Source: Zymoseptoria tritici IPO323
Lineage: Eukaryota; Ascomycota; Dothideomycetes; Mycosphaerellales; Mycosphaerellaceae
DNA length: 64,000 nt
NCBI RefSeq assembly: GCF_000219625.1
Contig: NC_018214.1
Span: 1,488,001-1,552,000, forward strand
Direction: 5' to 3'
Shown in pieces: positions 10,358-56,338 of the stretch. Under the pieces are notes generated by a model, which searched no databases, had not been told where the DNA came from, and was given only the letters and a program-made list of their open reading frames with translations. The position numbers and the translations under genes are program-made. Numbering within the stretch: position 1 is the stretch's first letter; every line of letters starts with the position of its first letter.

Positions 10358-10459
10358 CGATCAGCATGGGACTCGAACCCACAACCTTCCGCTTTCGGAC
10401 TTGTGGGATCGAGTCCCATGAAGTAGGAGGCGGACGCTCTACCATTGAGCCAACCGACC
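10358..10459 (-). tRNA. tRNA-Arg (anticodon CCT) with a 30-nt intron
   Basis: The 5' end is 10459. The acceptor strands GGTCGGT and GCTGATC pair with G-T wobbles. The D-arm is GCTC/GAGC, and the anticodon stem is TCCGC/GCGGA with loop CT-CCT-A. The T-arm is GTGGG/CCCAT around TTCGAGT. The box A-like TGGCTCAATGG and box B GGTTCGAGTCC promoter elements are present. The anticodon CCT lies at 10427-10425. The intron (10423-10394) sits at the canonical position after base 37. It contains a near-perfect reverse complement of the T-arm region (see findings). A TTTT terminator follows. Confidence 0.9.
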
Positions 10460-14759: not shown

Positions 14760-17700
14760 TCACTGTGTGCCAACATCCTCCTTTCGATCAGCCTCCCATT
14801 CCTTGAACATTGCTTCAATATCCTTATACCGAAAGGGCTTTGTGAGGAAGAGATCCACACCACTTCCATATGCTTCGTGCCTATCAGCCGACGAAGCTAA
14901 AGCCGTGAGAGCCACGATCATCGCGGGCTTCAAGTCTAACGCACGTTCATGCGCTCGTACACGCCGAGTGAACTCCAGACCGTCCATGACAGGCATCGTA
15001 ATGTCCGTGAGAATGAATCTCACGGGCGCGGTGCGTGTCGACTTGCCGTCCGAGGATGTCCTGACATGCTCCAAGCGATGGGAGTGGGACTCCTTATATA
15101 CCAGCAGTGCCTCCTGTCCATTGACGGCTGCTAGGTCAATCCGTCCTAGACGCTTGATGCATCTCCGGAGCAGGGTCAGATTGATCGGGTTGTCGTCCAC
15201 GAGTAGGACACTCGAATCCGTGATGAGTCCGGACTCTGGTGCAACAGGTCGTACGGCAATTTCTATGCTTGCGCTGACTTTGACAGCTCCCGATGAAGGT
15301 GCATATCGCTTCACGAGTTTCTCCGGCGTAAGTGCTGCGTGGTTGCCATTCGTTTGAACGCGGACTGCGGGCGAAGTAGGTTTCTCCGCTGAGATGGGTA
15401 TCTTCTCGCGGTTGTCGAGGCAAAAGATCAGGGCTTTGAGCAATTGCTTAGGTCCCAGTGGCTGAGCGACAGTCATAGCCGGTCCTAGGCTTGAGGCACA
15501 AAGTTGCCGTGCAGCTCGAGACGCCGTCACAGAATCGCAGAAGATCAGGCAGACTCTTGACCCTGAGGTCTCCTCACTCGTCTTCTTGTCCTCGACCAGC
15601 CTTCTCGCCGCTCGTTCCGTGATCACAAGAATGTCTGCAGTCTTTCCATTGTGCTCTTCAAATGGTTGCATTCCCAAGTACCTGCATACTTTCTCGATCG
15701 AAGAGCGTTGTATTTCAGTAGCTTCCGCCAATCTTGCCACCTCGCTCGTTGTTTCGAAACCCACCAAGGTGAAAGTGAGGCCCTTGATCTGAGCAGCTTC
15801 GGACAGACCACTCAGGTTATGAGTATCAGCGGGTGCGCCGGCCTGCAGTGGGAGAGCCAGCTTGATGGTTGTGCCCACATCCTTTGCACTTTTCAGGCTG
15901 ATGGTCCCGCCCATCTCATGGACCAAACTCCGGACGAGAGAAAGACCGAGCCCGGTCCCTGGCGTGTGACTATCCTCCTGCTTGAAAGCTTGCCACAAGC
16001 CGTATTTGAGGAACTCCTCGCTCATTCCGCGACCCGAGTCGGTGCAAGAGATCTTGATCATTGAAGAGCCCTTGTCCATGGACAAGGTGACTTTGAAGTA
16101 GCCGCCAGCGTCAGTGTACTTGATTGCGTTCATGGTCAAGTTCTGCAGAATTCTTCGAAACGCTCCAGAGTTGACATGAACGTTCCAACCCGTCGGAGGC
16201 AGATTGCGAATGTCGACATCGAGAATGACTCGCAGTGATGGGTCTTCAGCAAGTGGAGCTGCTGGATCATCTTTGCTGGTAGAAAGCGCAGACGGTCGCG
16301 GCGTCGACCACAGGGCGCTATCCAGCACTTCCTCCGCCAACACAGCCAGATCATGGACGGGCTGTTGCGCAGTATCACCGGCGTTACCGCGCCGTCGATG
16401 TGCACCCGGCCGCTGAGTCTTCCCAGATGAGCTCGAATGAGCGTGCTCCAGAAGGTTGTTGATAATGTCCAGAAGGCCTCTACCACAAGTGTCGATCATC
16501 TGCACCATCTGCTGTCGTGAGGACGGGTCATTATTGTGGATTTCCTCCTGCAGGCATTCGACACCACCGAGAATTCCCTGAAGTGGTGATCTCAACTCGT
16601 GCGACACGGATGAGATGAAAGATGTCTTCGCATGAACATCGGCCTGAATGTCCAGTCGGCCAACTTCTGCCATCACCACATCGCAACAGCATGCGAGATA
16701 GTTCATATCATCCTGGAATGTGAAGAGACGAGTGCGATTGTACGACCAGGCCACCGTCGCCGCGAAGAAGCGTCCTCGCGTTGCATCCCATAGCGGCATC
16801 ACGGCCAGTGAACGCACGCCAGGAAAGATCGACAAGATCTTGACTGAGTCTGACCATGCTCTCTTGCGATGCTCGGTCGTCGGTGACGAAGCATCGGATT
16901 GCTCATCGGATGAGAGGACTCCATCATCGCCGAAGTTGTAAATCTTGCCATGTGGATACCGCTTCATGAGTCCTCTCAAGAACTTCTCCGGTATTGTTCG
17001 ATGGCTTGGCTCGTAATTCTCATCCTCACCCTCTTGATAAGAAGTAGCGAGATAACGGCAAGGCTTCAGACGGAGAGGATGCGAGTTAGCCGAATTCGCG
17101 GTCTCTTCGCCCTCCATTGCGGTCACGGAATCGTAATCAGAAGCATCAGAGCTCTGGCCAGAGTCCGTCCTCATGCTGCCGAACTCTCCTATCGAAGCGT
17201 CGAGGAACAGCACACCGGCCATATCCATGGATTCCTGAATGATCATCGCAGCTCGCTGGAAGGCATGTTCCACATCTTGCGAAACGATGTCTTCCTGTAG
17301 TTGGGACGAGGTACCTAGCCGACCTCTGGGCTGGACCGAATGCCGTGTGAACAGCTTCCGTCTTCGGACCTTGGTCACAGCTGCCAGAGACGAACTCCTT
17401 GTGCACGGAGGTATGATGATCTGAGTCGGGAGACCAGCCGGAGCGTTGTGCGAATAAGCTTGACTTTGTTCGAAGAACCGTTCCCGGGCATCGCTCATCC
17501 GTTCCTGGTTGCTGGCGTGGTTGAGGGCCTGTGTTCTGCTCGAGGCGCCCAATGATGCGTTCTCGGACGCGTGAGTCGAATCGGCTGCGGTGGGATCTTC
17601 GTCACTCGGAGTGCGGTCATCCGCTACAGTCGACTTTCCTTCCATAAATCGACTCAATCCGGTCACCATACGCAGTCCGCGCTCGTGAGTCGTCTGTACT

Positions 17701-18429
17701 CTGGCCATTTCTAGATGGGTCATGATCGTAGTTGACACGTCTCTCAAGAATGCGATCTGAGGCTCGCTCAGTCCTTCCGGTCTAGGCTTATCGTCCAGTA
17801 TCGAGACTGTGCCGAGCGCAAATCCAGACGGCGTAAAGAGAGGTACGCCAGCAAAGCATCGCGCAAAGGGCGCATTGACGACTTGTACATGAGTGGAGTA
17901 TCGTGCATGAGCTGCCAGATCCGAAATGACCAGAGCGGCTTTCTTGCCACACAAGCCATCGTCGGTTTTCGACTTTCGCGCGAGCTGGAGGAGTTCTCCG
18001 GAGAAGTCTTCGGTCCGCGGCAGAATCGCGCTGCCATAATGTAGAGCGTCGCCTTTGTCATGCACGTAATCCTGTTGTAGACTCAAAGTCTGCGTGGCTT
18101 CAGCAAGGATATATTGGGCCTTCTTGTCGAATAGTGAAATCAAAGCTCGTTTCGCTCCAAGCCGAAGTGCAACGAGTTGGGCAAACGCGGTCAATGGAAC
18201 GTCGATGGAGGACTTTGCGGTTTTGCTGCCTTTTGAGCTGCGGAGAGCTAAGACTGCCTCGCCATATCTATTTCGTTCAGCATTTGCAGCAGACTTCCAG
18301 GTGAGCATGAGACCACCACGAGGTCAAGCAGCGATATTTGAAAGCTCACCGACGAAGTTCTCGCTCGCGACGGCTGGCGGAAAGCCTTTCGGGGACGCCA
18401 TCCTCTAGAGATTTGGATTGCTTTTCCAT
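14760..18429 (-). CDS. GAF-containing hybrid histidine kinase, 1195 aa
   Basis: Two-component sensor that autophosphorylates on His and passes phosphate to its own receiver, probably feeding a phosphorelay. Exon 1 is 18429-18350 and exon 2 is 18267-14760. The 82-nt intron ends TGCTGAAC...TAG and the join CG|A gives RERELRRYGEAV. The long uninterrupted ORF alone would begin inside this intron. Domains: GAF about residues 60-215 (LRLGAKRALISLFD; FAGVPLFTPSGFALGTVSIL); HisKA with phospho-accepting H583 in SFISSVSHELRSPLQGIL; HATPase with N box MNAIKYTDAGG and G box GTGLGLSLV; receiver from about residue 1043 (VLLVDDNPINL) with phospho-Asp D1115 in LTDITMPVMDG and a later LTKPF. There is no membrane segment, so it is probably cytosolic. 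The signal sensed is unknown. Confidence 0.93.
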
Positions 18430-40775: not shown

Positions 40776-41122
40776 GTTTGATAAGTGTCGTACTCGTCGA
40801 AGAGAAAGGCGAGGTCGAACGGAAGGTTTAGCCCATGCTCCGAGATGATGGACTCCAAAGCCGATCCTGCAGGGTTCCGCTTTGAGACTTTCCAAAAGCG
40901 CGACCCTCTCGTCACTTCATTCAACACGACCGCGCCAAAATACACTATTTGCGCGCCATTCTGGGAGGGTTTCGTTGCTTATTGTCCTGGCAAATGTCCT
41001 CTTGTTGACGGGATCTGTACTTCTCCCGCCTGCACGAGCGACAATTCCGACTCTCATCCCCGAGCGGAGATACCGCCATCGCCTCGAACACGTTCCCATC
41101 GAGCCATCCGATCTCGCCGACA
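40776..41122. other. divergent promoter of VMA21 and the Fun30-type gene
   Basis: 347 bp between divergent starts, with no gene in it. It must hold both promoters. Confidence 0.5.
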
Positions 41123-44100
41123 ATGGCTCACCACGACGATCCGATTAGTAGCGATAGCACTCCCAATAAGAGAAGGAAGTTGAACACTGAGAGCAGTGGG
41201 AAGGCCTGGGACTCGGAGAATGACAGTGGAGAAGACCTGTTCAACGAACACGACTTCGAGACTCTGGCTACAACAGCTGCTGCATCACAAGCACAGAGGA
41301 AGTCATTGCAGTATGGACCATCGCAATTGCATGCTGATCTTGGCTCGGCTTCTACTCGACCACCTACACAGTCTGGCACGTTTGTCACCCAGCCTACACA
41401 GCCGTTGCGACATACAACTCAGCCAACACAACCTCTACCACCGCGGTCACCAGAGGTACTAGTCGAGCGCTCGTCACCTCCCGCACCAGCCTCGACCCAG
41501 AAGCCCGCACCCGCACCAATCAACAGGGCGCCGTTCGCCAGGCCTAATGGCATTCTGGCGCGCACAATGGCACCTCCGGGTACGACATTCCGCCGACCAC
41601 CTGGAATACAAGCAAAACCCGCCGTGATCGATCTCGATGATAGTGATGAGGATCCGTCGGTACAGCGGAGTGATGAAGAGGAGGCTCCAGCTGCTCCAGC
41701 TCCTCCAGCTCCCATGCGGTCGAATATCAAGCCCACCAACTTCAAGAGAGCGGGTCGAGGTCTGGACTCTTCGCCCAATCGGGCGGCCAGAGAACTGCCC
41801 CAGGCCGCGCAGGTGCCCGCACCGACGGCGTTCATGGGTATGCTGAATCAGTTCGGCTATCAGCCGACTGCACCAACACAGCATCACGGCGGCGACTCGG
41901 CGAGTGCCTATGCGAATACCAGCAGACCGAACAGACCATTGATGTCGCTCAACAAGCAAGCCGGTCCGTCTCGAGCGAACCCCGTGCCACGATCAGCTCT
42001 GTACCAAACGATAGATGATGTGGACGATTACAGCTTGAGGAACAAAGTTATCGAGATGCAGCAAATATCGCCTTTACACACCATCCAGCAATGCATGGAT
42101 GCACTGACCATTAAGAGGGGGAATGTAGGCGATGCCCTTGCCTGGTTGGTGGAACAGGATGAGGCTGAGACGAACCCCGATGAGTTGTCGCTTAGTCCGA
42201 TCCAAAAGAAGGGCGTAGCGAAGACCGTCTCGCAAAATGCAAGATCTCAGGATTCGTCCTCTCAGCCCGTCCGGGCTACCACGAAGCAGCAGGTCAAAGG
42301 TGCGGGTATGACCATTGCTGAGAAGTACAATGCGAAAAAGGGCAACAACCCGATCAAGGATGCACTGGAAATGGAACTGGACTCGGACGATGAGGAGGTG
42401 ATTCGGCCGAGGGGACGTCTGATGCAAGGTACCAGACCTGTTGCGGGAAGACCGCTATCTTCGTCGCCACCGCCGGTGCAGCCTCGCCCACGCAATCGCC
42501 TTGCGAAGAAGTCCGTCATCACCATCGACTCGGACTCAGAAGGCGAGGACCAGGACGGCAGCGAGGATGACTTTGAGGAGCTATCTGGTCCTCCGCCAAA
42601 AACCGAACCAGAAGATAACACAGGACGCATGCAGGAAATCCGTGATGACCGATTATTGAAGCTGTTCAATGAATGTACGGTGCACGATCTGGCTGAATTG
42701 AGTGGTCACGCGGTTGATAATATCACATTCGTGCTGGACCAGCGGCCGTTCGTTGACTTGGACCATGTCCGCGGAATTGTCATGGAGACTTTGACCAAGA
42801 CAGGCAAGAAGTCGAAGCGAGTGCGGCAAGTTGGCGAGAAGCTCGTCGATGATTGCATTGAGGTCATGACTGGTTATGATGCGGTTGACGAACTGGTGGT
42901 GAAGTGCGAGGAGATTGCGAAGCCATTGCAGGAGGCGTTGAAAGCTTGGGGAGTCGACAAGGTTGACGGCGAGCTGCAAATTATGAAGCTTGACGAGGCC
43001 CACGACTCTGGTATTGGTACACCGACAAGTTCGTGCGCTGCGGATGAAGGTCCTACTCAAAAGTCGACGGGCAAGCCGAAAGGGAAGTTCCTCGGCCAGC
43101 CGGAGAACATGAACTCGAAGATGGTGATGAAGGACTATCAGCTCGTTGGACTGAACTGGCTCAACTTGCTGTACGACCGGAAATTGTCGTGCATCCTCGC
43201 CGATGATATGGGTCTGGGAAAGACATGTCAGATCATCGGCTTCCTGTCCCACCTGCAGATGAAGAAAGTTGATGGCGTGCACCTGATCATTGTGCCAGGC
43301 TCCACCCTGGAGAACTGGCTGCGCGAATTTGAAAGATTCGCTCCAAATCTCTCTGTCCGGCCCTACTATGGCTTGCAAAAGGAGCGAGAGGAGCTGCGAT
43401 ACCAGCTCGAAGCCGACTTTGCCGAGATCGATGTCGTCGTGACAACGTACGACATGGCGACTGGCGATGCGGACAATCACTTCCTCCGCCACTTCGGACC
43501 ATACTCTGTCTGCGTATACGACGAAGCTCACATGCTGCGCAATCCGAAGTCGAAGCGCTACAGACAGCTCATGCGCATTGGTGCTGACTTCAAAGTCCTG
43601 TTGACCGGCACGCCTCTCCAGAACAACTTGCAGGAACTCGTCGCCATCCTCGCCTTCATCATGCCGGATTTGTTCTTGGAGAAGAGTGAAGACTTGGAGT
43701 ACATCTTCAAGCACAAGGCGAGCACGAAAGATACGGCCCACGCTGCATTGCTGTCTGGTGAGCGCATTGCTCGAGCTAGAACGATGATGACTCCGTTCAT
43801 CCTGCGTCGCAAGAAGCATCAGGTCTTAGATTTGCCGAAGAAGACGTCTCGTGTGGAATGGTGCGACATGAGCGACACCCAAGCCAATCTCTACGCGGAT
43901 GTCATCAGCGAGGCGCAAGACTTCTTCAACGAGAAGGCTAAAGGTACCGTCAAAGCTTCAGCATCTCGCAGCTCCAACGTGATCATGTCGCTCCGCAAAG
44001 CCGCCATACACCCTCTGCTCTCCCGCCGCATCTACGACGACAAGAAGATCGACAAAATCGTCTCGGTCCTGTCAAAGTCTGACGAGTTCGGCGCAAACAC

Positions 44101-44929
44101 TCCCGAGAAGATTCGTGCGTACATCGACGGCTCAGCCAGCGATCAAGTCGTCAAAGGCGGCGACTTTGCCATCCACCGCTTCTGCTATGATCGCGACTAT
44201 CTGCGCAAGAAGTTTGCATTGAAGCGTAAAGAGTGGATGGACTCCGGTAAGGTGGAAGTCTTCAAAGAGCTCATCACCCGCTGGGCCGCGAATGGCGATC
44301 GCGTACTGGTCTTCTCACAATTCACCACCGCCATGGACATCCTGGAAGCCGTGCTCGACACATTGGACGTCAAATTCATGCGTCTGGACGGACAAACGAA
44401 GATGGACATCCGCCAGGACATGATCGACACCTTCACCAACGACACTTCCATCCCCGTCTTCATGCTCTCGACCAAAGCCGGCGGCGCGGGAATCAACTTG
44501 GCCGCCGCGAACAAAGTCATCGTCTTCGACTCGGGTTTCAATCCACAAGACGACATTCAAGCCGAGAATCGCGCACATCGGGTCGGTCAGACGAGGGATG
44601 TGGAGGTTGTGAGATTGGTGACGAGGGGTACGATTGAAGAGCAGATTCATGCATTGGGTGAGTCGAAGTTGGCGCTTGATGATCGGGTCGCGGGTGAGGC
44701 TGCGAGCGCTGCGGAGTCGAGCAGTTTGGAGAAGGAGGGGGAGAAGTTGGTGGAGGATATGCTGGTGAAGCAGATTAAGGGAGAGGATAAGAAGGGAGGT
44801 GAAGAGACGGTCAAGGAGGAGAACGAGGAGAAGCCGGTCGTGGAGAACGGTGGAGATCTCAAGGACGCATTCAAGAAGGGACTGGAAGGAGAGGGATTGA
44901 AGGTCGAGTCGAAGCAGGCACAGTATTGA
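41123..44929 (+). CDS. Fun30/SMARCAD1-type SNF2 chromatin remodeller, 1268 aa
   Basis: ATP-dependent nucleosome remodeller linked in yeasts to silent chromatin and DNA-end resection (Fun30, Fft3). Single exon. Residues 1-310 are disordered. A CUE-like helical segment lies near 315-350 (VIEMQQISPLHTIQQCMDAL). Acidic stretches follow, then the SNF2 ATPase. It has a P-loop GLGKT with K700 (LADDMGLGKTCQIIGFL), the DEAH box at D800-H803 and motif III LTGTPLQNNLQEL. The helicase C-terminal lobe has VLVFSQFTTAMDIL, STKAGGAGINLAAAN and the AENRAHRVGQ motif VI around residues 1147-1156. The tail is Lys/Glu-rich. Length and order match the Fun30 class better than Ino80, Swr1 or Isw1. Confidence 0.95.
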   Translation: MAHHDDPISSDSTPNKRRKLNTESSGKAWDSENDSGEDLFNEHDFETLATTAAASQAQRKSLQYGPSQLHADLGSASTRPPTQSGTFVTQPTQPLRHTTQPTQPLPPRSPEVLVERSSPPAPASTQKPAPAPINRAPFARPNGILARTMAPPGTTFRRPPGIQAKPAVIDLDDSDEDPSVQRSDEEEAPAAPAPPAPMRSNIKPTNFKRAGRGLDSSPNRAARELPQAAQVPAPTAFMGMLNQFGYQPTAPTQHHGGDSASAYANTSRPNRPLMSLNKQAGPSRANPVPRSALYQTIDDVDDYSLRNKVIEMQQISPLHTIQQCMDALTIKRGNVGDALAWLVEQDEAETNPDELSLSPIQKKGVAKTVSQNARSQDSSSQPVRATTKQQVKGAGMTIAEKYNAKKGNNPIKDALEMELDSDDEEVIRPRGRLMQGTRPVAGRPLSSSPPPVQPRPRNRLAKKSVITIDSDSEGEDQDGSEDDFEELSGPPPKTEPEDNTGRMQEIRDDRLLKLFNECTVHDLAELSGHAVDNITFVLDQRPFVDLDHVRGIVMETLTKTGKKSKRVRQVGEKLVDDCIEVMTGYDAVDELVVKCEEIAKPLQEALKAWGVDKVDGELQIMKLDEAHDSGIGTPTSSCAADEGPTQKSTGKPKGKFLGQPENMNSKMVMKDYQLVGLNWLNLLYDRKLSCILADDMGLGKTCQIIGFLSHLQMKKVDGVHLIIVPGSTLENWLREFERFAPNLSVRPYYGLQKEREELRYQLEADFAEIDVVVTTYDMATGDADNHFLRHFGPYSVCVYDEAHMLRNPKSKRYRQLMRIGADFKVLLTGTPLQNNLQELVAILAFIMPDLFLEKSEDLEYIFKHKASTKDTAHAALLSGERIARARTMMTPFILRRKKHQVLDLPKKTSRVEWCDMSDTQANLYADVISEAQDFFNEKAKGTVKASASRSSNVIMSLRKAAIHPLLSRRIYDDKKIDKIVSVLSKSDEFGANTPEKIRAYIDGSASDQVVKGGDFAIHRFCYDRDYLRKKFALKRKEWMDSGKVEVFKELITRWAANGDRVLVFSQFTTAMDILEAVLDTLDVKFMRLDGQTKMDIRQDMIDTFTNDTSIPVFMLSTKAGGAGINLAAANKVIVFDSGFNPQDDIQAENRAHRVGQTRDVEVVRLVTRGTIEEQIHALGESKLALDDRVAGEAASAAESSSLEKEGEKLVEDMLVKQIKGEDKKGGEETVKEENEEKPVVENGGDLKDAFKKGLEGEGLKVESKQAQY

Positions 44930-45716
44930 GTACGCTTTGGGCAACGCATGGAATGAACACTTGAATGCCAGGTTTGGTCACTGAATGAGTCTTTGCAAAG
45001 TATCGCGCTGCTGCTGCTTGTGTTCTAGCTCCGAACGGTTTGTTATCACCTCGATCCGCTCCAGGCGAGGTCGATCGTGCATCGAATGCAAGAGATTCAT
45101 GAACGCGATCCGCCACGACGCCGTCGATGTATTTGCATGCATTGATTCGATCACGAACGACAAAAGAACGGCAGAGTCAGCGATGGCTCGGACAGGAGCT
45201 TCGAATCGCATTGACAGGGCATCTCATCAGGGCTGAGGGTCACTCAAGCTGCGCACCCGCATCTCGCGAAGTCGTACCCTTCGACTGTTTCGCAGACCGA
45301 AACCTGCACCACTCTCTCGCCGCTTCATCAAGCTGCCCCGCAAGCCGCGATCTCAATGGCTTCAACAAGATGGGTTCGAGAGGAAAGGCTTCAAGATTCA
45401 GTCTAAGCAGTAATTTTTGCTTTGGACATGGTGGAAGATGAATGCATCGATGCCGTCTCTAGTAAGCTGAGTCACTGCCTCCCATCGATTTTCCCTCATT
45501 TCTTGTGTCTTATCGATTGGAGAGTTCTCATAGCTCACATCGCAGCGTTTGCAAGTGCAGCGCCCCGTTTGCAATTCTGCGTCAATCTCCATGCACGCTC
45601 GCAGCTCAAGACTTATCTCCGAGATTCTTTCCGAGATTCTTCCTTCGAACTGATCTCAATTGAAAGCTGCACAGCTGTCAGTGCTTGTCAGGACACCACC
45701 ACATTGGCATCTCGTC
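44930..45716. other. intergenic region before the paralogue array
   Basis: No gene is recognised. The last 130 bp resemble the same position upstream of the third array gene: 17 identical bases, ATGCACGCTCGCAGCTC, lie at 45591-45607 and 48101-48117. A 13-bp tandem duplication (TCCGAGATTCTTT-like) lies near 45620-45650. Confidence 0.5.
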
Positions 45717-46606
45717 ATGGCACGCCCTCGCAAGTCGCGTAACCGCGGGATGCATCCTCCTTCCGGGCCGCAACGCCCAGCTGCAACACACGCTCTCTCC
45801 TTAAAGGCAATCGTTCGCGCAACCAAAGTACTCGATCGCAGCAAATTCCAACTCCTCGTGTTGCCCCGCGAGCTGCGCGACTCGATCTATGGCTATGCCA
45901 CTATCGACAAGCAGGCTGCTAGTCTCTGCGGCACTACGTTCGAGTTGCGCCCTCGCCAGGTTGCACAGTGGAACCTTCTTAGCGTCTGCCGCCAAGTCCA
46001 GATCGAGTATCAACAAGGTAAGCATTGAGCGGAAACGTGCATCTCTTACTTTTGATCGCATCACTGCGCTATTAAAGAGCTTGCTAACACGACTCCCAAT
46101 CACTGGTAGTTGTCGACAAGTCCGCCAGCCTCGAGATCTACGATCTAATGGACACTATCCCGTCCCCTGCGGAGATTACCAGCTTGCCCGCAGCCGCTTC
46201 CGGCATCACTTCGCTGGTCATTTATCTCATTTCGGACGCAGCTCTACAAGGAATCTCCGAGATGACACAGCACAAGCGCTGGGTTGACAAGGTCTTGCAT
46301 CTGCTTCCGAATCTGCGCAGCCTGAGCTTATCGACTCACGCTCCCTTGGCCTTCAGCTTCGGGATTGCTAGGATGGAAGCTGAGCTAGCTCCCTGGATGA
46401 AGCTACCTTTACTTCGTGAGTTCAAGGTATGGGATGCGTTCAAGGAAGTGAAACAGCTGCGGACCATCGAGGAGCACGGCAGCTCGTCTGAGCGCGAGGT
46501 TTTGGTCATGGAGTGGTCGAAGGAGGGTGGGGGCTGGCAGGACCTCGACCAGCTCGAGATCAAGAGAGCGGCTTTGAGGCTCGTTGAGATTGGTGATGAG
46601 CTTTGA
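45717..46606 (+). CDS. PRELRD-motif paralogue A of a tandem family, 265 aa
   Basis: First of four tandem paralogues. Exons are 45717-46017 and 46110-46606, joined G|TT (VVDKSASLEIYD). The N-terminus is basic (MARPRKSRNRG). The family head motif is FQLLVLPRELRDSIYGYA at residues 44-61, which recalls the short N-terminal LPxELRxxIY motifs of fungal 2EXR/F-box-like orphan proteins. The second part has EITSLPAAASGITSLVIYL, a WVDKVLHLLPNLRSLSL helix and EVLVMEWSKEGGGWQDL. There is no signal peptide or membrane segment. The function is unknown; a leucine-rich, F-box-adaptor-like surface is conceivable but not shown. A further in-frame ATG lies at 45660. Confidence 0.75.
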
Positions 46607-46964
46607 GGTCGAACGGTTCGATGGAAGACGGTACGACAGTGGCTTTGTGGACGGTGAAGTGGGAGAATACGGTCAAGGTCAGCTACCACGAGACATTTCT
46701 CCTTTCCTGGTCGCATGGCCAATCTGACCTCTCTAGTGGTAGGCATACCGAAAGGTATGAAGAGTCCTTCCAGTCGGCTCTGTCGTAGCTAACAGGAGCT
46801 TTCAATGTCACTGTCTCACATGCAAGAAGCCGGGCATAATCCGTGCCTGCTCATGCGCTAAAAGTAAGCTAAAACTTGACGTGCATCGTCACTTCTTCAC
46901 GACTTCACCAGACTTAGTCTGCTCAGACGCACTCGGCTTGTGCCAAACTTCCTTCATCAACACC

Positions 46965-47829
46965 ATGCCTCTCCTATCTCTAGGCATGGCCACGGCATCG
47001 AACTACCAGCAAGCGATGGTGGCCGCGCGCCCAAGCACGACAAACGCAGCAGATGCGCAACGAGACATCTTTCGCTTTTTCGATCTGCCACGAGAGCTGC
47101 GCGACCTGATCTGCGAGTATGCCCTCTTTGATGGAGCGCCAACTAGTCTCTGTGGCACCAAGGTCAAGCTGCGGCCTCGTAATATTGCCCGCCAACATGT
47201 TTTGACCGTTTGCCGGCGACTCAAGAACGAGATGGAAAAAGGTGAGTACAGCCGAGACTTCTTCTTAGCTCTTTTCACAACATGATCAATGCATCGAAAG
47301 TCGCTGACGCTCATGGCCACATCCTGTAGTTGCAGCAAGTCGCGCCACCCTCGACGTTTTCGACTTGAATGGACACATCCCTGAACCGAACGAGATCATC
47401 AGCCTCCCTGTTGTCGCTGCCAGGACTTCTGCGTTGGTGCTTCACCTCATCCGCTCGAACTGCAAAACCGTCGACGAATACGCACTTATGCCTGAGATCC
47501 AGCGGCACAGGCTCTGGATCGATAAGCTCTTGCAGATGCTACCAACACTCTGCAATCTGACCATAATTGTCCACACTCAACGGGCGCAAACCTGCGGACC
47601 AGATGCAATTAGTGCGCTGAAAGAAGTTCTGGCACCATTGATGGAATTAGCGCATCTCGAAACACTCGAAGTGTACAAGGCGGAGGGATCGTTCGTCATG
47701 ATAAAAAGCATCGAAGAGCACCGTGCTGCTACCATTGGCAGCCTCCTGGTCATGAAGTGGTCAGGAGTCGGAGGGAAGTGGGAAGACGTCCACGACGAGC
47801 CGACTGCTGTGGAAACATCGGTGCAGTAA
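46965..47829 (+). CDS. PRELRD-motif paralogue B, 258 aa
   Basis: Exons are 46965-47241 and 47330-47829, joined G|TT (VAASRATLDVFD), the same position and phase as in its neighbours. Motif FRFFDLPRELRDLICEYAL; then LCGTKVKLRPRNIARQHVL, as in A (LCGTTFELRPRQVAQWNLL). The second part keeps EIISLPVVAARTSALVLHL, WIDKLLQMLPTLCNLTI and LLVMKWSGVGGKWEDV. Its closest relative among the four appears to be A (inference from these shared stretches). The start could instead be the Met at 46986. Confidence 0.75.
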
Positions 47830-48218
47830 GCGTATGGCGTGTGGAAGGCCAACAAGAATCGGAATTCTGGGCAGCGCCGCAGCAGGATACTGTTGTAAAC
47901 CACGAGCGCCTGGACCGGAATTACTGTGGTCGCTCAATCCAAAGAGGATCGAGTCGTAGCTCTTCGCCATTCGTTGATGGTAACTTACGGCGTCAAAAAA
48001 TGGTCAATAGAATGTTACCTTTCTCGATTCCTCTTCATCAATGTTGCGGTCCGCTTTCACGTGAAAACCGCGGTCGTGCTCCATGCTAGCGTACACGCTA
48101 ATGCACGCTCGCAGCTCCAAGCAGTGTTCGCGATTTTGTCCAGACTTTCTCTTCGACACAATCGACACAAAAAAGTTCTCATCAACATCGTAACCAAGCA
48201 AAATCAACAGCGCCAACT

Positions 48219-49131
48219 ATGCCGGCGGAACTTCATCAACCAGCGACTGCCGCGCCACCTGCGCAGGGAGCGATGGCAAGCGCAAACGCCGCACCAAGCG
48301 CATCGAACGATCAGAACAGGGACATCTTCGAGTTCTTCGAGTTGCCGAGGGAGCTCCGCGATCTCATCTATGGATACGCTGTTGATGAAAAGTCCGCTCT
48401 CCAGTTCGCCGATACCGAGTTCCAGCTGCGATGCTGCGACGCTCCTTGTGTCAATTTCCTGCTTGTTTGCCGACAGGTCAAACTAGAGTACATGGAGAGT
48501 GAGTACAGTATCCAGCGCAATACATTTGTCATGCTAGCGAGAATCCTCTCTGAAGCTTTACTGACCGCTGCCGCGGCGTTCTGTAGCTTCCAACAAGTTC
48601 GGACCGACACTCGAGATTTTCGACTTACTACAGGCAGTGGCGGATCCCTCCGACATCAAGTCACTCCCTGAACCGATGCTACTTACTACTTCGCTGCACT
48701 TGCGCCTCACCTCGGATTTGGATGTTCAAGGCAATAATGAGATGACCAGCCACATGCACTGGGTCGCCAAATTCCTGCCCATGCTTCCACGGCTCGACCG
48801 GCTGGCAGTAACGGTCCTTTGCCCTGTCAAAGGCGCCTTTGGTACTGCTGAGATGGCGCATCATCTGGCTCCGTGGTTGCGTCTACCGCACTTCAAGCAG
48901 ATCGAGGTGTACGATACGAGAAAGGAGATTTACTCACTGTCGGACATCATGGCGTACGAAAATCTGATGGATCGTAAGCTTTTGAGCATGAGGTGGTCAG
49001 AGGAAGGTCAGAAGTGGGAGGATAGCCACGGAAAAGATCTCGTGTTGGAAGAATGGAAGGAATTTGACGATGACGATGACGAGACCGGAAATGGGGACGG
49101 GTACAAAAACGAACAGGGAGAGGGTGTATAG
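48219..49131 (+). CDS. PRELRD-motif paralogue C, 274 aa
   Basis: Exons are 48219-48498 and 48587-49131, joined A|CT (TSNKFGPTLEIFD). Motif IFEFFELPRELRDLIYGYA at about residues 35-53. The second part keeps DIKSLPEPMLLTTSLHLRL, WVAKFLPMLPRLDRLAV, LAPWLRLPHFKQIEVYD and LLSMRWSEEGQKWEDS. It ends with an acidic tail (EEWKEFDDDDDETGNGDG). The 5' flank is homologous in part to that of A. Function unknown. Confidence 0.75.
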
Positions 49132-49682
49132 GCAGATGAGGGAGAATGGAAAGATGATGTGTCGGGTGCAGCTGGAACGCAAGAGCGGGCAGCGGAACAA
49201 GCTGGAGTGATCGGTGTCGTCATGCTAGAGACAGCGCAGAGCGGCGATCGTGAGGCGATGTGTCTACAAACCAAGATGGTGAGCGATCTTGACTGCCTGC
49301 GTCTAAGGGGCAGCACAGCGCAGTCTCGAGCGCCGAGTATACTTCAATGCATCGCAGGAGAGCTGTTGAGTGACTGTAATGTATTCAAATTTTCAATCAA
49401 CAAAGCTCCTGCTCGCCGCACCGCACGATCGCATCTGCTGTGCGCATTATGATACGCAATATTTCACGGTGCTCAATGATCCAGACAATCTCAACTGTGT
49501 GTGCTTTCAGTAGAATGCCAGCCTGACTCAATCGAGCTGCAGACGCTAGACCTGTCACATGCAAATTCATGGACATGAACCCAGCTAGTGCCTGCTAGCG
49601 CAAACATGTAGCTCAAAGCTCGTCTTCACGAATTCCGCAACTTGACCATCTCTGCTCGAAGCAACACTCCGCTTGCGCAAAT
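49132..49682. other. intergenic spacer within the array
   Basis: No gene is recognised. Spacers A-B (46607-46964) and B-C (47830-48218) are likewise empty and hold untranslated sequence and promoters. Confidence 0.4.
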
Positions 49683-50815
49683 ATGGTTCCTTTCCAACCG
49701 CAGACCCATGCGTCTCCCAGCATGGCGACCACGCCACACCATCAGCAAGCACTCCCAGCTGCGCGACAGGGTTCACCAAACATGGCCATCGCAGCAGACG
49801 CATCGAACCATGAGGATCGCAGCACCTTCCATTTCTTCGATGATGTACCGAGGGAGCTGCGCGATCTGATCTACGAATATGCGCTTCACGCCCCACAGCG
49901 TTTCTTACTCGGCAATTCCAAGTTTACCGTGCAGCCTCGCCGCGTTCCCTGCTCGCATCTATTGACGGTCAGCCGCCAGTTCAAGAGCGAGTACATGAGC
50001 TGTAAGTACAGCTCAGAGTCTAGCGCATGACACGATCGCTTCAGCCAGCCTTCTGAGTGCTGCGCATCCGGGCTCGAACAGTCGCTAATCCGTCCATATC
50101 ACTTCTAGGTGCCGACAAGCTTGCGACATTGGACATCTTCGACCACGGCGAGTCTCTCCCGCAGCCGCAAGAAATCGTCTCACTGCCCAGCCCCGCTCTC
50201 AACATCTCTTCGCTTGCGCTTCACCTCATCGCGGAAAGCAGCGATCCCAGCTTCCCGGATATGGACCTTCATATGAAGTGGGTCAGGCATATCATGTCTA
50301 TGCTCCCGCGTCTTCGAAGTCTGAATGTAACTGTGCACGCCAACTCGGAAGATCTCGCCCGTATCTTCGGCATCAAGAAAGCTGTCGCTCCATGGGTACA
50401 GCTCACGGTTCTCAAGGAATTCGAGGTGTACAAGACGCCGACATTCATGATGCCGAACCTTTGGTCGGTTTCCGGACATGAAGGGATGAAGACCCCGGAT
50501 TTCCTGGTCACGAGATGGTCGCTGCAGAGAGGCGAGTGGGAGGACTCCACTGACAAAGGGCCTGTTTTGATAGGCTTGTTGGATGACGTGCAGGACGAGG
50601 AAGACGGCGGAGAAGACTCCGGGGACGCTGGCGACGATGTTGAACACGACGAGGAACGCACGTCAGTGAAGGATGAGGACAAGGAGGAACACAATGAGGA
50701 AGAACTCACCGCGGCAGATGACGAGTCTGACGAGGAATGGCTTGCTCCTGTGAATCCTTACGAATACGGCACGGAGGAGTATCGGCAGTTCAAGCGGGAA
50801 GTGTTGGATGCGTGA
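49683..50815 (+). CDS. PRELRD-motif paralogue D, 341 aa
   Basis: Exons are 49683-50001 and 50109-50815, joined T|GT (CADKLATLDIFD). Motif FHFFDDVPRELRDLIYEYAL. The second part keeps EIVSLPSPALNISSLALHL, WVRHIMSMLPRLRSLNV, VAPWVQLTVLKEFEVYK and FLVTRWSLQRGEWEDS. It is the longest copy because of an acidic C-terminal extension of about 90 residues rich in Asp and Glu (DVEHDEERTSVKDEDKEEHN), ending EYGTEEYRQFKREVLDA. Such a tail may mediate charged contacts, but function is unknown. Confidence 0.75.
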
Positions 50816-51244: not shown

Positions 51245-53368
51245 CTAGTACTCCAGAGTGATCTCCTGGTCCTTGACGCGTCCAATGACAATGGAGCTCG
51301 CGTACCTGTTTGCATGTTAGCAACTGTCCCGAAGACCGTAAGAAATGCATTCTCAACTCACTTGGGAATAACCTCATCATCGTGCATCATCTCAAACTCC
51401 TCTGAAGCGTCCTTGCCCATGTGGCTGAACAGTGCCTGAGGACCACCGGGGTGCTCGTCAACCCAGTTGGTGACATCCATGACGATACCCTTGACTGCGA
51501 TCCACAGGTCCTCCTTCTTGTTGTGCTTTGCGACCTCCTCCAAGCTGAACTCCTTCTCAGGCACCTTGAAGTTCTTTGGGTCATATGGCTCATCGACCTT
51601 GCCGGGCTCCTGGTTCTTGCCCATGACGGGTGCAGCGGAGTGCTGCTTTTGCTGGTTGATCTTATCTGCGGCGCTGTCGCTGCTTGAAGCAGAGGCACCG
51701 TTGCCCCACTCGACGGAGATCTTGCCGGGTGTGCTTGGGTCGATGTGCAGGCTGATTTGGCCGGCACGGGTCGCGGCGGAGCCACCGGCGCTGTTGAGTG
51801 CCTGCTGCATGAGGTACTTGCTTGAGCTGGCACCCGCAACACGGCCGTAGACGACACATCCGAGGAGAGAAGAACCACCGAGACGGTTGGCACCGTGAAC
51901 ACCACCAGCCAACTCACCGCAGATGAACAGACCATCGAAAGGCTTGCCCTGGTTGTTCAGGACCTGAGCCTGGTCGTTGATCTCGATACCACCCATGGTG
52001 AAGTGGAGCACGGGCTCCATCTGGGCGACGTGGAAGTCGTCGTTGACCTCAACCGGGAAGTTATGGAAGAACTTCTTGTTGTATGGATCCTTCTCCTCGC
52101 CGTTGGCGTACTTGTTGTATGCAGTGAATGTCTTGTTGAGCGCCTGCTCGCCGCAGCCGATCTCCTTGGCAAGCTCCGCTCCGGTCATCTTCTTCATGAG
52201 GCCACGGCCGGAGTAATGGCGAGTGTGGAAGTCGAGAGTGTTGGATGCCTTGCTGTTGAGGACGAGGCGAATGGGCCACAGACCCTGCTCCTTCTGCTTC
52301 CACATCTCGTTGGAGACGAAATCACGGTGCTGGAGCTCATCGACGAATCGCTCTCCCTTGTTGTTCAACAAAAGACCACCCTCTCCACGGAGAGCCTCAG
52401 CAGCCAAGAACTTGGTCTTTGCGGTTGGGTCCTTGGGGTCGACCAGACCAGTTGGGTGAACCTGCACCTTGTCCATGTCGATGTCGTTGGCACCAATCTT
52501 CATCAACATCTTGTGTCCGTCACCGGTAGCGTGGTTGCCGTTGGTGGTGGAGAGGTCGAAGGTATCGGGCCTGTGCTTCTTGAGGAGCGAGTCCTCTGTG
52601 AAATCGGCGGCGTAACCACCGGTGGCCAGGACAACTGGGCCGTCCACAGTGACCTGCTCGCCGTTGAACTCATATGTGACACCAGTGGCACGCTGGCCGT
52701 CCATGTTGATGTTCTTGACCTTGGCCTTCTTGATGAGGGCTACACGCTCTGGCTCTTTCTCGGACAGCTCCTCGAATCGCTGCATGAGCGCGTAGGTGAT
52801 GGCCATACCGGGGAATTTGGCATCGTGGCCACGGTGGGTACGCGGGTAGGAGTGTCCTCTGTGGGAGATCGTCAGTATCGCATTTCTCGGGTATTGCGGA
52901 TATGTCAAAGTACGTACCCTAACCGGGAAACGAGGGTCAGGTCGAGGTTGAAGACATCCTGCAGCCACTCGACAGCGGCGGCGGACTGGTATGTGAGGAC
53001 CTTGATGAGATCTGGTCGAGCCTTGTCACGGGCGGACTTGAATGTGTCGTCGTAGAATTGCTTGACGCTGTCCTGGATCTTGTGGTCGACCTGGGTGCGG
53101 GTCAGGGCTCCGTTGATTCCGGAGGTGGCCTTGGTGGAATTGCCTCCCATGAAGTCTGAACGCGCGCATTAGTGGATTGTTGGCCGGCGAGACATCGACG
53201 ACGAGGACGTACTGTTCTTGTCGAGGAGGAGAACATTGCCACCGGCGAGGTAGATGGTGTGCGCAGCACTCAGGCCGGAAACTGTCCTATTGTCAGCGGA
53301 TTGCACCCCTCTTTTGGGCGTGGAGAGTACTCACGGCCGGCGCCGACGACGATGACTCTCTCAGGCAT
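51245..53368 (-). CDS. soluble fumarate reductase with C-terminal cytochrome b5 domain, 632 aa
   Basis: FAD flavoprotein of the Osm1/Frd1 type that reduces fumarate to succinate, helping reoxidise FADH2 or NADH. Five exons: 53368-53335, 53281-53213, 53155-52918, 52858-51362, 51305-51245; all phases agree. The N-terminal dinucleotide-binding motif VIVVGAGLSGLSAAHTIYLA is built across the first intron. FAD and substrate landmarks are NSTKATSGINGALT, VVLATGGYAADF, TTNGNHATGDGHKM, DKVQVHPTGLVDP, ALRGEGGLLLNNKGERFVDE and GGVHGANRLGGSSLLGCVV. After a Ser/Ala linker (about 470-545) a cytochrome b5 domain follows, with heme-ligand His in WVDEHPGG and MMHDDEVIP. There is no cleaved signal peptide, so it is cytosolic or organellar by an unseen signal. 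The fusion is common in filamentous fungi. Confidence 0.94.
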
Positions 53369-54439: not shown

Positions 54440-55805
54440 CTACATACCTGGCGGGTAGCCTGGTGGCGGTGGTCCGTAGCCAGGAGCGCCTGCGAACGTG
54501 GTCACCGCGTAGATGGCCGGCGCTTCCTCACAGTCGTCGGTGACTGTAGGAAGAGGTGCAGCTGCAGTGGTGGTCTCTTCACATTCTTCGTACGCTGAAG
54601 TGGTTGTCGTCGATTCTGTACAGTCGCTGTGGGCTGGAGCGCTCGAGGTGGCATTCGGCGCCGTGGTAGATATCCCATGAGGGATGCTGCCAGTGCCTGG
54701 CAAGCCCGTGCCGGTAAATGATGAAGGATTTGAGACGGTCGATGAAACATTGAAATAGCCGGAAATGCTGGCAGGACGGGAAGGGCTCGCAGACGACGTC
54801 GATGGGGAAGTAGTAGCATTGCTGCGCATGGTCGATGATGCAAAAGTAGGTGCTATCGAAGTAGCGTTGCTGCGCATGGTCGATGATGCAAAAGTTGGTG
54901 CTGTCGAAGTAGCGTTGCTGCGCATGGTCGAGGATGCAAAAGTAGGTGCTGTCGAAGTCGCGTTATTTGGCACGATCGCTGACGAAGAAGAGGCTGGTGC
55001 CGAGGTACTATTGGCCGGTACAGTGGACGAAGGCATGATTGAGCTGACGGGTAAAGCGGCCGAAGAAGAGACGGTAGAGTTGGAAGAACCACCGGAAGCT
55101 CCACACGAATTGATCATGTCGGAATCGAGTACAATAGCGGATCCCGCGTACAGACCACCTTGGACCTCCGCAGCCGTGTTGAGTGTGATGTCAGTACCAG
55201 CCAAAATGTTGCCGGCGAACGCGCTTGTTGTCCCGATGGTAGCTGCGGACTTCACAATCCAGTACACACTACAAGGATCAGCTTGGTCCCTGAGGTTGAC
55301 CATGGAGCCGCTGCCAGTGGTGAGCGAACTCCCGATCTGGATGACATATAGCCCGTCGCCGGAGAGAGTCAGCATGCCATCAAGGGTGACGGCAGAGTCG
55401 AAGCTGTAGATACCGGGACGAAGTGTCAGGCCCGCGAGACTTGCCAATGCTCCGAAGCGCTGTGTCGGAGGCAGTCCTTGTCCTTGCTTGAATGCCGCTG
55501 TGGAATCGGCTTGGGCTTGTTTGGCGACTTCGTTTGCAACGGCCAAAGTTCCCGTGTACAGTCCTGGCGGGAATCCGGTGACGGCTAATGTTGATGTTAG
55601 TCTCAGCTTATTTGAGCGTGGTCTTGGTCGACTGACAAGTCCCTGTCGTGCCGACATCTCCGTTGATCTCAGTGTCTCCAGTGTTGCTGACACCAGCTGG
55701 AGCAAGAGCCCCGAAACTGCCTGCAGTTCCAAGATTGACGGTCCCTTGAGCATGAGAGAGGGCAGCGCTTGCCACAAGCATGCGGACGGCATCGCTGAAC
55801 AGCAT
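54440..55805 (-). CDS. secreted DUF3494 ice-binding-type protein, 437 aa
   Basis: Exon 1 is 55805-55637 and exon 2 is 55584-54440, joined T|CC (GTTGTSVTGFPPG). Signal peptide MLFSDAVRMLVASAALSHA, then a DUF3494 domain (about residues 21-215). Landmarks are VNLGTAGSFGALAPAGVSNT, GDTEINGDVG, LAGLTLRPGIYSF, LTLSGDGLYVIQIGSSL, CSVYWIVKSAATIGTTSAFA, GNILAGTDITLNTAAEVQG and LYAGSAIVLDSDMI. This beta-solenoid family includes fungal and bacterial antifreeze proteins. The tail (220-437) is Ser/Thr/Pro-rich with three 16-residue repeats and NAT glycosylation sequons, like a cell-surface stalk. There is no hydrophobic GPI signal at this end. A GTATGT overlaps the stop, so a further exon may end the gene at 54352 (see findings). 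Ice binding is family knowledge, not shown here. Confidence 0.9.
54813..54956 (-). repeat. three 48-bp in-frame repeats in the ice-binding-type gene
   Basis: Units 54813-54860, 54861-54908 and 54909-54956 differ at only a few positions. Each encodes 16 residues of the form SNATSTAPTFASSTMR with one N-glycosylation sequon. A diverged partial copy (NNATSTAP) precedes them in the protein. Confidence 0.95.
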
Positions 55806-56338
55806 GATAGCGGACGAAGGACGGATGAGAGTCGGTACGGAAGAGGTGTGCAGCACTGCTCTGACTTATACTGGTAGACAGTGGTCGTCAACCAGGTTTG
55901 CTGCTTACCCGAGATGAGAGGGCACAACCCAGATGCGCTACTACGGCACGTCTAGGGGTATGTCTTGCCGCTCGCGCACAGGTACAGAGCCACGGCCCCA
56001 CACAGATCGAGGAGTTCATCCCTGACGCACCACATGGCATCGCCAATGTCCTTCCAAGCGCGATCAGTGAGGTCCTGAGCTTGCGACGACTTTCGTGCTC
56101 TCTGTTGGGTAGTGTCGTTCGCGATGAAGCGATTGTCCTCTGCCTGATCGTCGCAGGGTTGTTTGTTTGCGTGCGGTCAGAGTTAGGGACCCGGTCTTCA
56201 TACAGGGCTATGGGCAGACCTTTGCCTCTATGCAGCCCAAGTCCTCACTCGACAGGACTGGGTTCGGCAATTTGTTCTCTTGTTTGAAGGCGTCAACCTG
56301 AAATGTTCGCAAGACGAGACGCTCAGCTTCTCGAAGTT

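What the first reader, a model, noticed from the sequence alone, without database searches (positions are those of the whole stretch)
45717..50815. Tandem array of four paralogues of an uncharacterised PRELRDLIY-motif family
Four same-strand genes in 5.1 kb share a head motif (LPRELRDxIYxYA), a SLPxxxxxxTSLxLxL segment, a WVxxxLxMLPxLRSL helix, and a W-containing end (MxWSxEGGxWEDx). All have one phase-1 intron (88-107 nt) at the same place. Parts of the 5' flanks of A and C are identical over 17 bases. The copies have diverged strongly, and C and D have gained acidic tails. This points to repeated local duplication with diversification, a pattern seen in families under changing selection such as recognition or adaptor proteins. 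No function is known to me.
Basis: partly seen in the sequence, partly recalled or inferred. Interest (0 to 1): 0.75.

Follow-up and report, generated by a model that had tools for sequence, protein, structure and literature searches.

The report
Tandem F-box-like genes in a fungus
Four neighbouring genes of a wheat-leaf fungus are old, much-changed copies of one gene that resembles protein-disposal adaptors; such clusters are ordinary, but one copy differs unusually strongly between two sister species in the part that probably grips its target.

Summary
Four same-strand genes (45717-50815) are paralogues, 35-41% identical over 215-259 aligned residues, each with one phase-1 intron at the same alignment column. 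In this 39.7-Mb, 21-contig genome (it fits Zymoseptoria tritici IPO323), searches with A, C and D found only weak matches elsewhere (E 0.004 or more), confined to the N-terminal/head part.

The family is not wholly uncharacterised. The head is a divergent relative of the fungal F-box-like/2EXR/DUF7730 superfamily: hhalign 96.6% against ten genome copies found without A-D, 0.2% for a reversed control. A-D stay below the Pfam cut-offs; a fused Z. brevis orthologue passes two. This superfamily often lies in small clusters in this genome.

The duplications are old: A, B and C each have a Z. brevis orthologue; none was found for D. Paralogue dN/dS is 0.34-0.47 with near-saturated dS, so diversifying selection is not shown. 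Most striking: in C, N-terminus plus head are 51/60 identical between species, the rest 77/180; A shows the reverse.

Most likely mechanism (inferred): intracellular SCF-type adaptors, head docking on Skp1, alpha/beta body binding a target. Neither is tested; structure searches were inconclusive. A new, divergent branch of a known kind.

The parts
45717..46606 (+). Gene A, 265 aa, one phase-1 intron 46018-46109
   Evidence: ORF and splice check; Z. brevis orthologue = first half of P0005, 182/242 identical
46965..47829 (+). Gene B, 258 aa, one phase-1 intron 47242-47329
   Evidence: ORF and splice check; Z. brevis orthologue = second half of P0005, 164/246 identical; sub-threshold F-box-like_2
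48219..49131 (+). Gene C, 274 aa, one phase-1 intron 48499-48586, acidic tail
   Evidence: equals annotated protein P0001 of strain ST99CH_1A5; Z. brevis orthologue P0002, 139/272 identical
49683..50815 (+). Gene D, 341 aa from this ATG (328 aa from the ATG at 49722 used in P0032), one phase-1 intron 50002-50108, long acidic tail
   Evidence: sub-threshold 2EXR
45858..45901 (+). Head motif of A (copies at 47082-47125, 48339-48382, 49842-49885), F-box-like first helix LPRELRDxIYxYA
   Evidence: the repeat finder family D1, 66-80% DNA identity to the reference copy; hhalign to independent family copies
45591..45607 (+). 17-base upstream element of A
   Evidence: identical to 48101-48117; only exact pair in the genome
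48101..48117 (+). 17-base upstream element of C

Best explanation
An old tandem array of four genes of a divergent branch, so far seen in Zymoseptoria and in a few unnamed environmental fungal-type proteins, of the F-box-like (2EXR/DUF7730/F-box-like_2) superfamily. Shown: tandem paralogy, shared intron, head homology to that superfamily, orthologues of A, B and C in Z. brevis, intact reading frames. Inferred: each protein stays inside the cell; the head (LPRELRDLIYxYA ... LLxVCRQxxxEY) docks on Skp1 of an SCF ubiquitin ligase, and the alternating strand/helix body after the intron grips a target protein to be ubiquitinated, so that duplication and drift or selection on the body made four different specificities. 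The acidic tails of C and D may tune binding or localisation (guess).
For: Head homology: hhalign of the seven A/B/C/D proteins (four here, three Z. brevis) against ten genome copies fetched with Pfam models and not through A-D: 96.6%, E 6.5e-10, both head motifs in register; reversed control 0.2%. Pfam: sub-threshold F-box-like_2 for B and C, 2EXR for D; the fused Z. brevis A+B model P0005 passes 2EXR (28.6 against 24.8 bits, summed over two stretches) and F-box-like_2 (22.7 against 21.6). Head against 29 canonical F-box segments of this genome: 49-62% over 16-18 columns, reversed 0.7%. Clusters are the rule for this superfamily here: 52 merged loci, 20 within 10 kb of another in 8 clusters, against 1.4 (maximum 10 in 1000 draws) for uniform placement. 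Outside relatives P0034 and P0007 match D, or C and B, best in this genome. No strongly hydrophobic N-terminus. In A. nidulans some F-box receptors have only a partly conserved F-box, and three bind SkpA even without it (PMC9744329, passages).
Against: A-D reach no Pfam cut-off and are absent from the genome lists for canonical F-box models at E<=0.05. Without the first head motif the match to the superfamily falls to 13%, and the body alone to 0.3%. The head model is poor (pLDDT 61) and found no F-box fold; the body shows no detectable LRR, WD40 or other known fold. Skp1 binding, ubiquitination and targets are untested.
Confidence: 0.55

Rival explanations
1. F-box-like in descent but not in work: the head has lost Skp1 docking and the proteins act as plain intracellular scaffolds or dimerising proteins through the body.
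For: A-D are below cut-offs of all the F-box-type models tried; the part of the F-box that lies around VCRQ is only weakly matched (no-head 2.7% to canonical F-box).
Against: The head is the most strongly kept part among the four (PRELRD invariant) and in gene C between species (25 of 27 head positions), which a functionless relic would not be.
Confidence: 0.25
2. Recognition genes in conflict (allorecognition, or defence against mobile elements or viruses), with a fixed head and a fast body.
For: Gene C between species: front 51/60, back 77/180 identical (Fisher p 6e-9), against 147/180 in the back of A. Tandem array with strong divergence.
Against: dN/dS between paralogues is below 1 (single regions up to 0.64); gene A shows the opposite pattern and B none; C is identical in ST99CH_1A5 and this genome. 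No between-species codon data.
Confidence: 0.12
3. Secreted effectors acting on the plant.
For: The fungus is a plant pathogen; tandem divergent families are common among effectors (recalled).
Against: Highest 12-residue mean hydropathy in the first 50 residues is 0.25-1.24, low for a signal peptide (recalled rule of thumb; no signal-peptide program was run); heads match an intracellular domain superfamily.
Confidence: 0.03
4. Neutral remnants: redundant copies drifting without function.
For: Strong divergence, no known phenotype.
Against: Open frames and the same splice structure in all four, three orthologues with open frames in Z. brevis, dN/dS below 1.
Confidence: 0.05

Closest known systems
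Pfam 2EXR (PF20150), DUF7730 (PF24864) and F-box-like_2 (PF13013) proteins of fungi
   Same: Head LPxELRxxIYxxx followed by LLxxCRQxxxE in the same order; small tandem clusters in the same genome.
   Different: A-D score below all three cut-offs; one intron after the second head motif; body not alignable to the ten independent copies (0.3%).
Canonical F-box proteins (PF00646, PF12937) of SCF ubiquitin ligases
   Same: First helix aligns over 16-18 columns at 49-62%.
   Different: No match at E<=0.05 for A-D in the genome lists; no LRR or WD40 body found.
Z. brevis TI39_contig357g00016 (P0005) and g00015 (P0002)
   Same: Orthologues of A plus B, and of C, in neighbouring locus tags.
   Different: A and B are annotated as one fused 543-residue protein there, whether by misannotation or truly fused is unknown; no D was found.
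Unnamed environmental proteins P0007, P0033, P0034
   Same: Head plus the beginning of the body align to the A-D profile (47-53 bits); P0033 also has an acidic tail.
   Different: The body-only profile finds none of the three; organism unknown.

Membership tests
2EXR (PF20150) | whole-protein score at or above Pfam's cut-off (24.8 bits) | tested here: not met
   Best of A-D: D, 18.5 bits or 22.1 for its exon 1 in the genome search. Fused orthologue P0005 reaches 28.6 over two stretches.
F-box-like_2 (PF13013) | score at or above 21.6 bits | tested here: not met
   B 16.9, C 14.1; P0005 22.7.
DUF7730 (PF24864) | score at or above 27 bits | tested here: not met
   C 10.1, D 13.1; no A-D row among the 68 matches.
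F-box-like superfamily in the broad sense | head homology to independent members | tested here: met
   hhalign 96.6%, reversed control 0.2%.
Canonical F-box (PF00646, PF12937) | profile match | tested here: not met
   No row at the array in the lists at E<=0.05; weak profile-profile match of 49-62% over 16-18 columns.
Canonical F-box | three-helix F-box fold | tested here: inconclusive
   Head model pLDDT 61 with two long helices and a hairpin; no useful fold match.
SCF substrate adaptor | Skp1 binding and substrate ubiquitination | not testable with these tools
   needs binding experiments
FBXL (F-box plus LRR) | leucine-rich-repeat body | tested here: inconclusive
Secreted effector | N-terminal signal peptide | tested here: inconclusive
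   Hydropathy only, 0.25-1.24 over 12 residues.

The most novel reading that the evidence does not exclude
The array is a small receptor set in which a fixed docking head is combined with a body that changes fast, and gene C is the one in active conflict: its target (for example an allorecognition partner or an invader's protein) differs between Zymoseptoria species, so that only the body was rewritten. This would be a fungal counterpart of the fast-evolving F-box repertoires of plants and nematodes.
Probability: 0.12. Interest if true: 0.6.

Novelty: new member of a known kind. Interest (0 to 1): 0.3.

Why it matters
It gives a named superfamily to genes that no Pfam model catches at its cut-off, and shows that F-box-like genes in this wheat pathogen often lie in small clusters. 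If gene C's body is truly under diversifying pressure, the array is a compact place to ask what fungal F-box repertoires recognise, a question for which I found no work on the 2EXR or DUF7730 domains in my searches.

Tried and rejected
Leucine-rich-repeat body: expected from the LPxLxxLxV segments, not supported by the model. An F-box fold for the head: a 21-row alignment still gave a poor model and no match. Sequence search of solved structures: none for the A-D profile; six vinculin entries at E 0.13-0.34 for the head profile, taken as chance.

Positive selection between paralogues: Nei-Gojobori dN/dS 0.34-0.47 over the whole, regions up to 0.64, several regions with saturated dS; not informative. 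Gene conversion of C's body from another paralogue: not favoured, since the last third of the body still joins the two C proteins (85/87), but the middle part does not resolve (51/13).

Conserved promoter: only the 17-base A/C match stands out; B and D share nothing longer than 10 bases with each other there.

Uniqueness of the body: mostly but not wholly clean. Against the fetched loci only (a small database), gene D matched the frame at C7:2095021 over residues 9-211 at E 1.3e-5, 26% identity, and three short body matches of other rows had E 0.026-0.72; in the genome-wide search the same C7 place matched residues 24-108 only, E 0.059.

Absence of D in Z. brevis is weak evidence: one search scored only the 7996 candidates sharing most words, and full-length A and B of Z. 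tritici did not come up either.

Papers: PMC7448473, PMC9548119, PMC8631298, PMC9744329 seen as passages; PMC7991009 as abstract and outline; PMC13059725 as the start of its abstract; the rest as listings.

Full report
Where it is. The window is contig 5, 1488001-1552000, of a genome of 39,686,251 bases in 21 contigs. Size and contig number fit Z. tritici IPO323: the 39.7-Mb reference is stated in PMC7448473 (passages), and 21 chromosomes in PMC13059725 (start of abstract). Gene C's protein is that of Z. tritici ST99CH_1A5. The array lies between a SNF2-type helicase gene (41009-44929, +) and a gene with FAD-binding and cytochrome-b5 domains (51358-53025, -).

The array. Four genes with one phase-1 intron each, at the same alignment column. 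Pairwise identities are 87/215, 93/234, 86/222, 82/231, 97/236 and 90/259; 39 columns are invariant. Genome searches with C, A and D gave 9, 15 and 11 matches, of which 1, 7 and 3 lie outside the array; these have E 0.004-0.43 and cover query residues 7-113 only. So within this genome the body is, as far as these searches go, private to the array, with one weak exception at C7:2095021 (see Tried and rejected).

Which family. Pfam gives A nothing, B and C a sub-threshold F-box-like_2 match, C and D sub-threshold DUF7730, D sub-threshold 2EXR. The Z. brevis fused model P0005 passes 2EXR and F-box-like_2, though for 2EXR the score sums two stretches. To avoid circularity I took ten open frames fetched with PF24864, PF20150 and PF13013 models (L037, L041-L048, L050; headless exons L038-L040 and the canonical F-box L049 were left out) and compared profiles: 96.6%, E 6.5e-10; head alone 96.6%; without the first motif 13%; body 0.3%; reversed family 0.2%. 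A larger, partly circular set of 30 gave 98.1%. Against 29 canonical F-box segments of this genome the head reached 49-62% over 16-18 columns, the independent family copies 35%, reversed controls under 1%. So descent from the F-box-like superfamily is well supported; identity with the canonical F-box is only suggested.

A genome habit. By my count, 35 of 68 DUF7730, 23 of 36 2EXR and 8 of 25 F-box-like_2 rows are over cut-off. Merging the 65 distinct places closer than 900 bases gives 52 loci, of which 20 have another within 10 kb, in 8 clusters; uniform placement gives 1.4 on average, 10 at most in 1000 draws. Long genes with distant exons could inflate this somewhat. In contrast a survey in Macrophomina phaseolina reported 31 F-box proteins and no gene duplication among them (PMC7991009, abstract).

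Age. P0005 (TI39_contig357g00016) is the A and B orthologue in one model, P0002 (g00015) the C orthologue. In the seven-protein tree A, B and C pair with their orthologues at 100/99, 100/99 and 99/98 (ultrafast bootstrap/SH-aLRT); A joins C at 83/84. The duplications giving A, B and C thus predate the split of the two species. D has no Z. brevis counterpart. In wider searches the best outsiders are environmental proteins P0007, P0033 and P0034; they align to the A-D profile through the head and into the body, and of the two tested, P0034 hits D best and P0007 hits C and B best in this genome.

Uneven divergence. Between the species the front (N-terminus plus head) and the back are identical at 27/60 and 147/180 in A, 39/59 and 122/187 in B, 51/60 and 77/180 in C (Fisher p 2e-7, 1.0 and 6e-9); the back of C differs from that of A (p 2e-14) and B (p 2e-5). 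These p-values treat positions as independent. No baseline from ordinary genes and no codon data from Z. brevis were available, so whether this is selection, relaxed constraint or a wrong gene model in Z. brevis is open. Paralogue dN/dS is 0.34-0.47 with dS 1.46-1.99.

Mechanism. From established knowledge (recalled, and PMC9744329 passages), F-box proteins bind Skp1 with the N-terminal F-box and substrate with the C-terminal part, and in A. nidulans several receptors have only a partly conserved F-box. By analogy the A-D head would dock and the body select; every step of this is inferred. In Z. tritici one LRR-type F-box gene on chromosome 13 has been linked by association mapping to metabolite levels (PMC9548119, passages); that is a different gene.

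Verdict. The finding is real and its reading as local duplication with diversification is right; it belongs to a known, large kind. Interest 0.3, raised above routine only by gene C's uneven divergence.

Noticed in passing
48219-49131 with P0002: Gene C: front 51/60 but back 77/180 identical to its Z. brevis orthologue; gene A shows the reverse (27/60, 147/180).
   Followed up: partly
P0005 (Z. brevis TI39_contig357g00016): The A and B orthologues are annotated as one 543-residue protein; probable misannotation, a true fusion is not excluded.
   Followed up: partly
54440-55951, - strand: Open frame with an ice-binding-like domain (PF11999, 127.9 bits) and a 48-base tandem repeat at 54812-54964, 3.2 copies, 94% matches.
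   Followed up: no
14760-18323, - strand: Hybrid histidine kinase (HisKA, HATPase_c, response regulator).
   Followed up: no
10358-10459, - strand: tRNA match of 102 bases (49.4 bits), longer than the 71-position model, so probably with an intron.
   Followed up: no
G000:C4:2856288-2858620: Three canonical F-box matches within 2.3 kb on one strand: another cluster, of the canonical kind.
   Followed up: no
1327-1536: Tandem repeat of period 69, 3.0 copies, 69% matches, inside the frame 383-2236.
   Followed up: no
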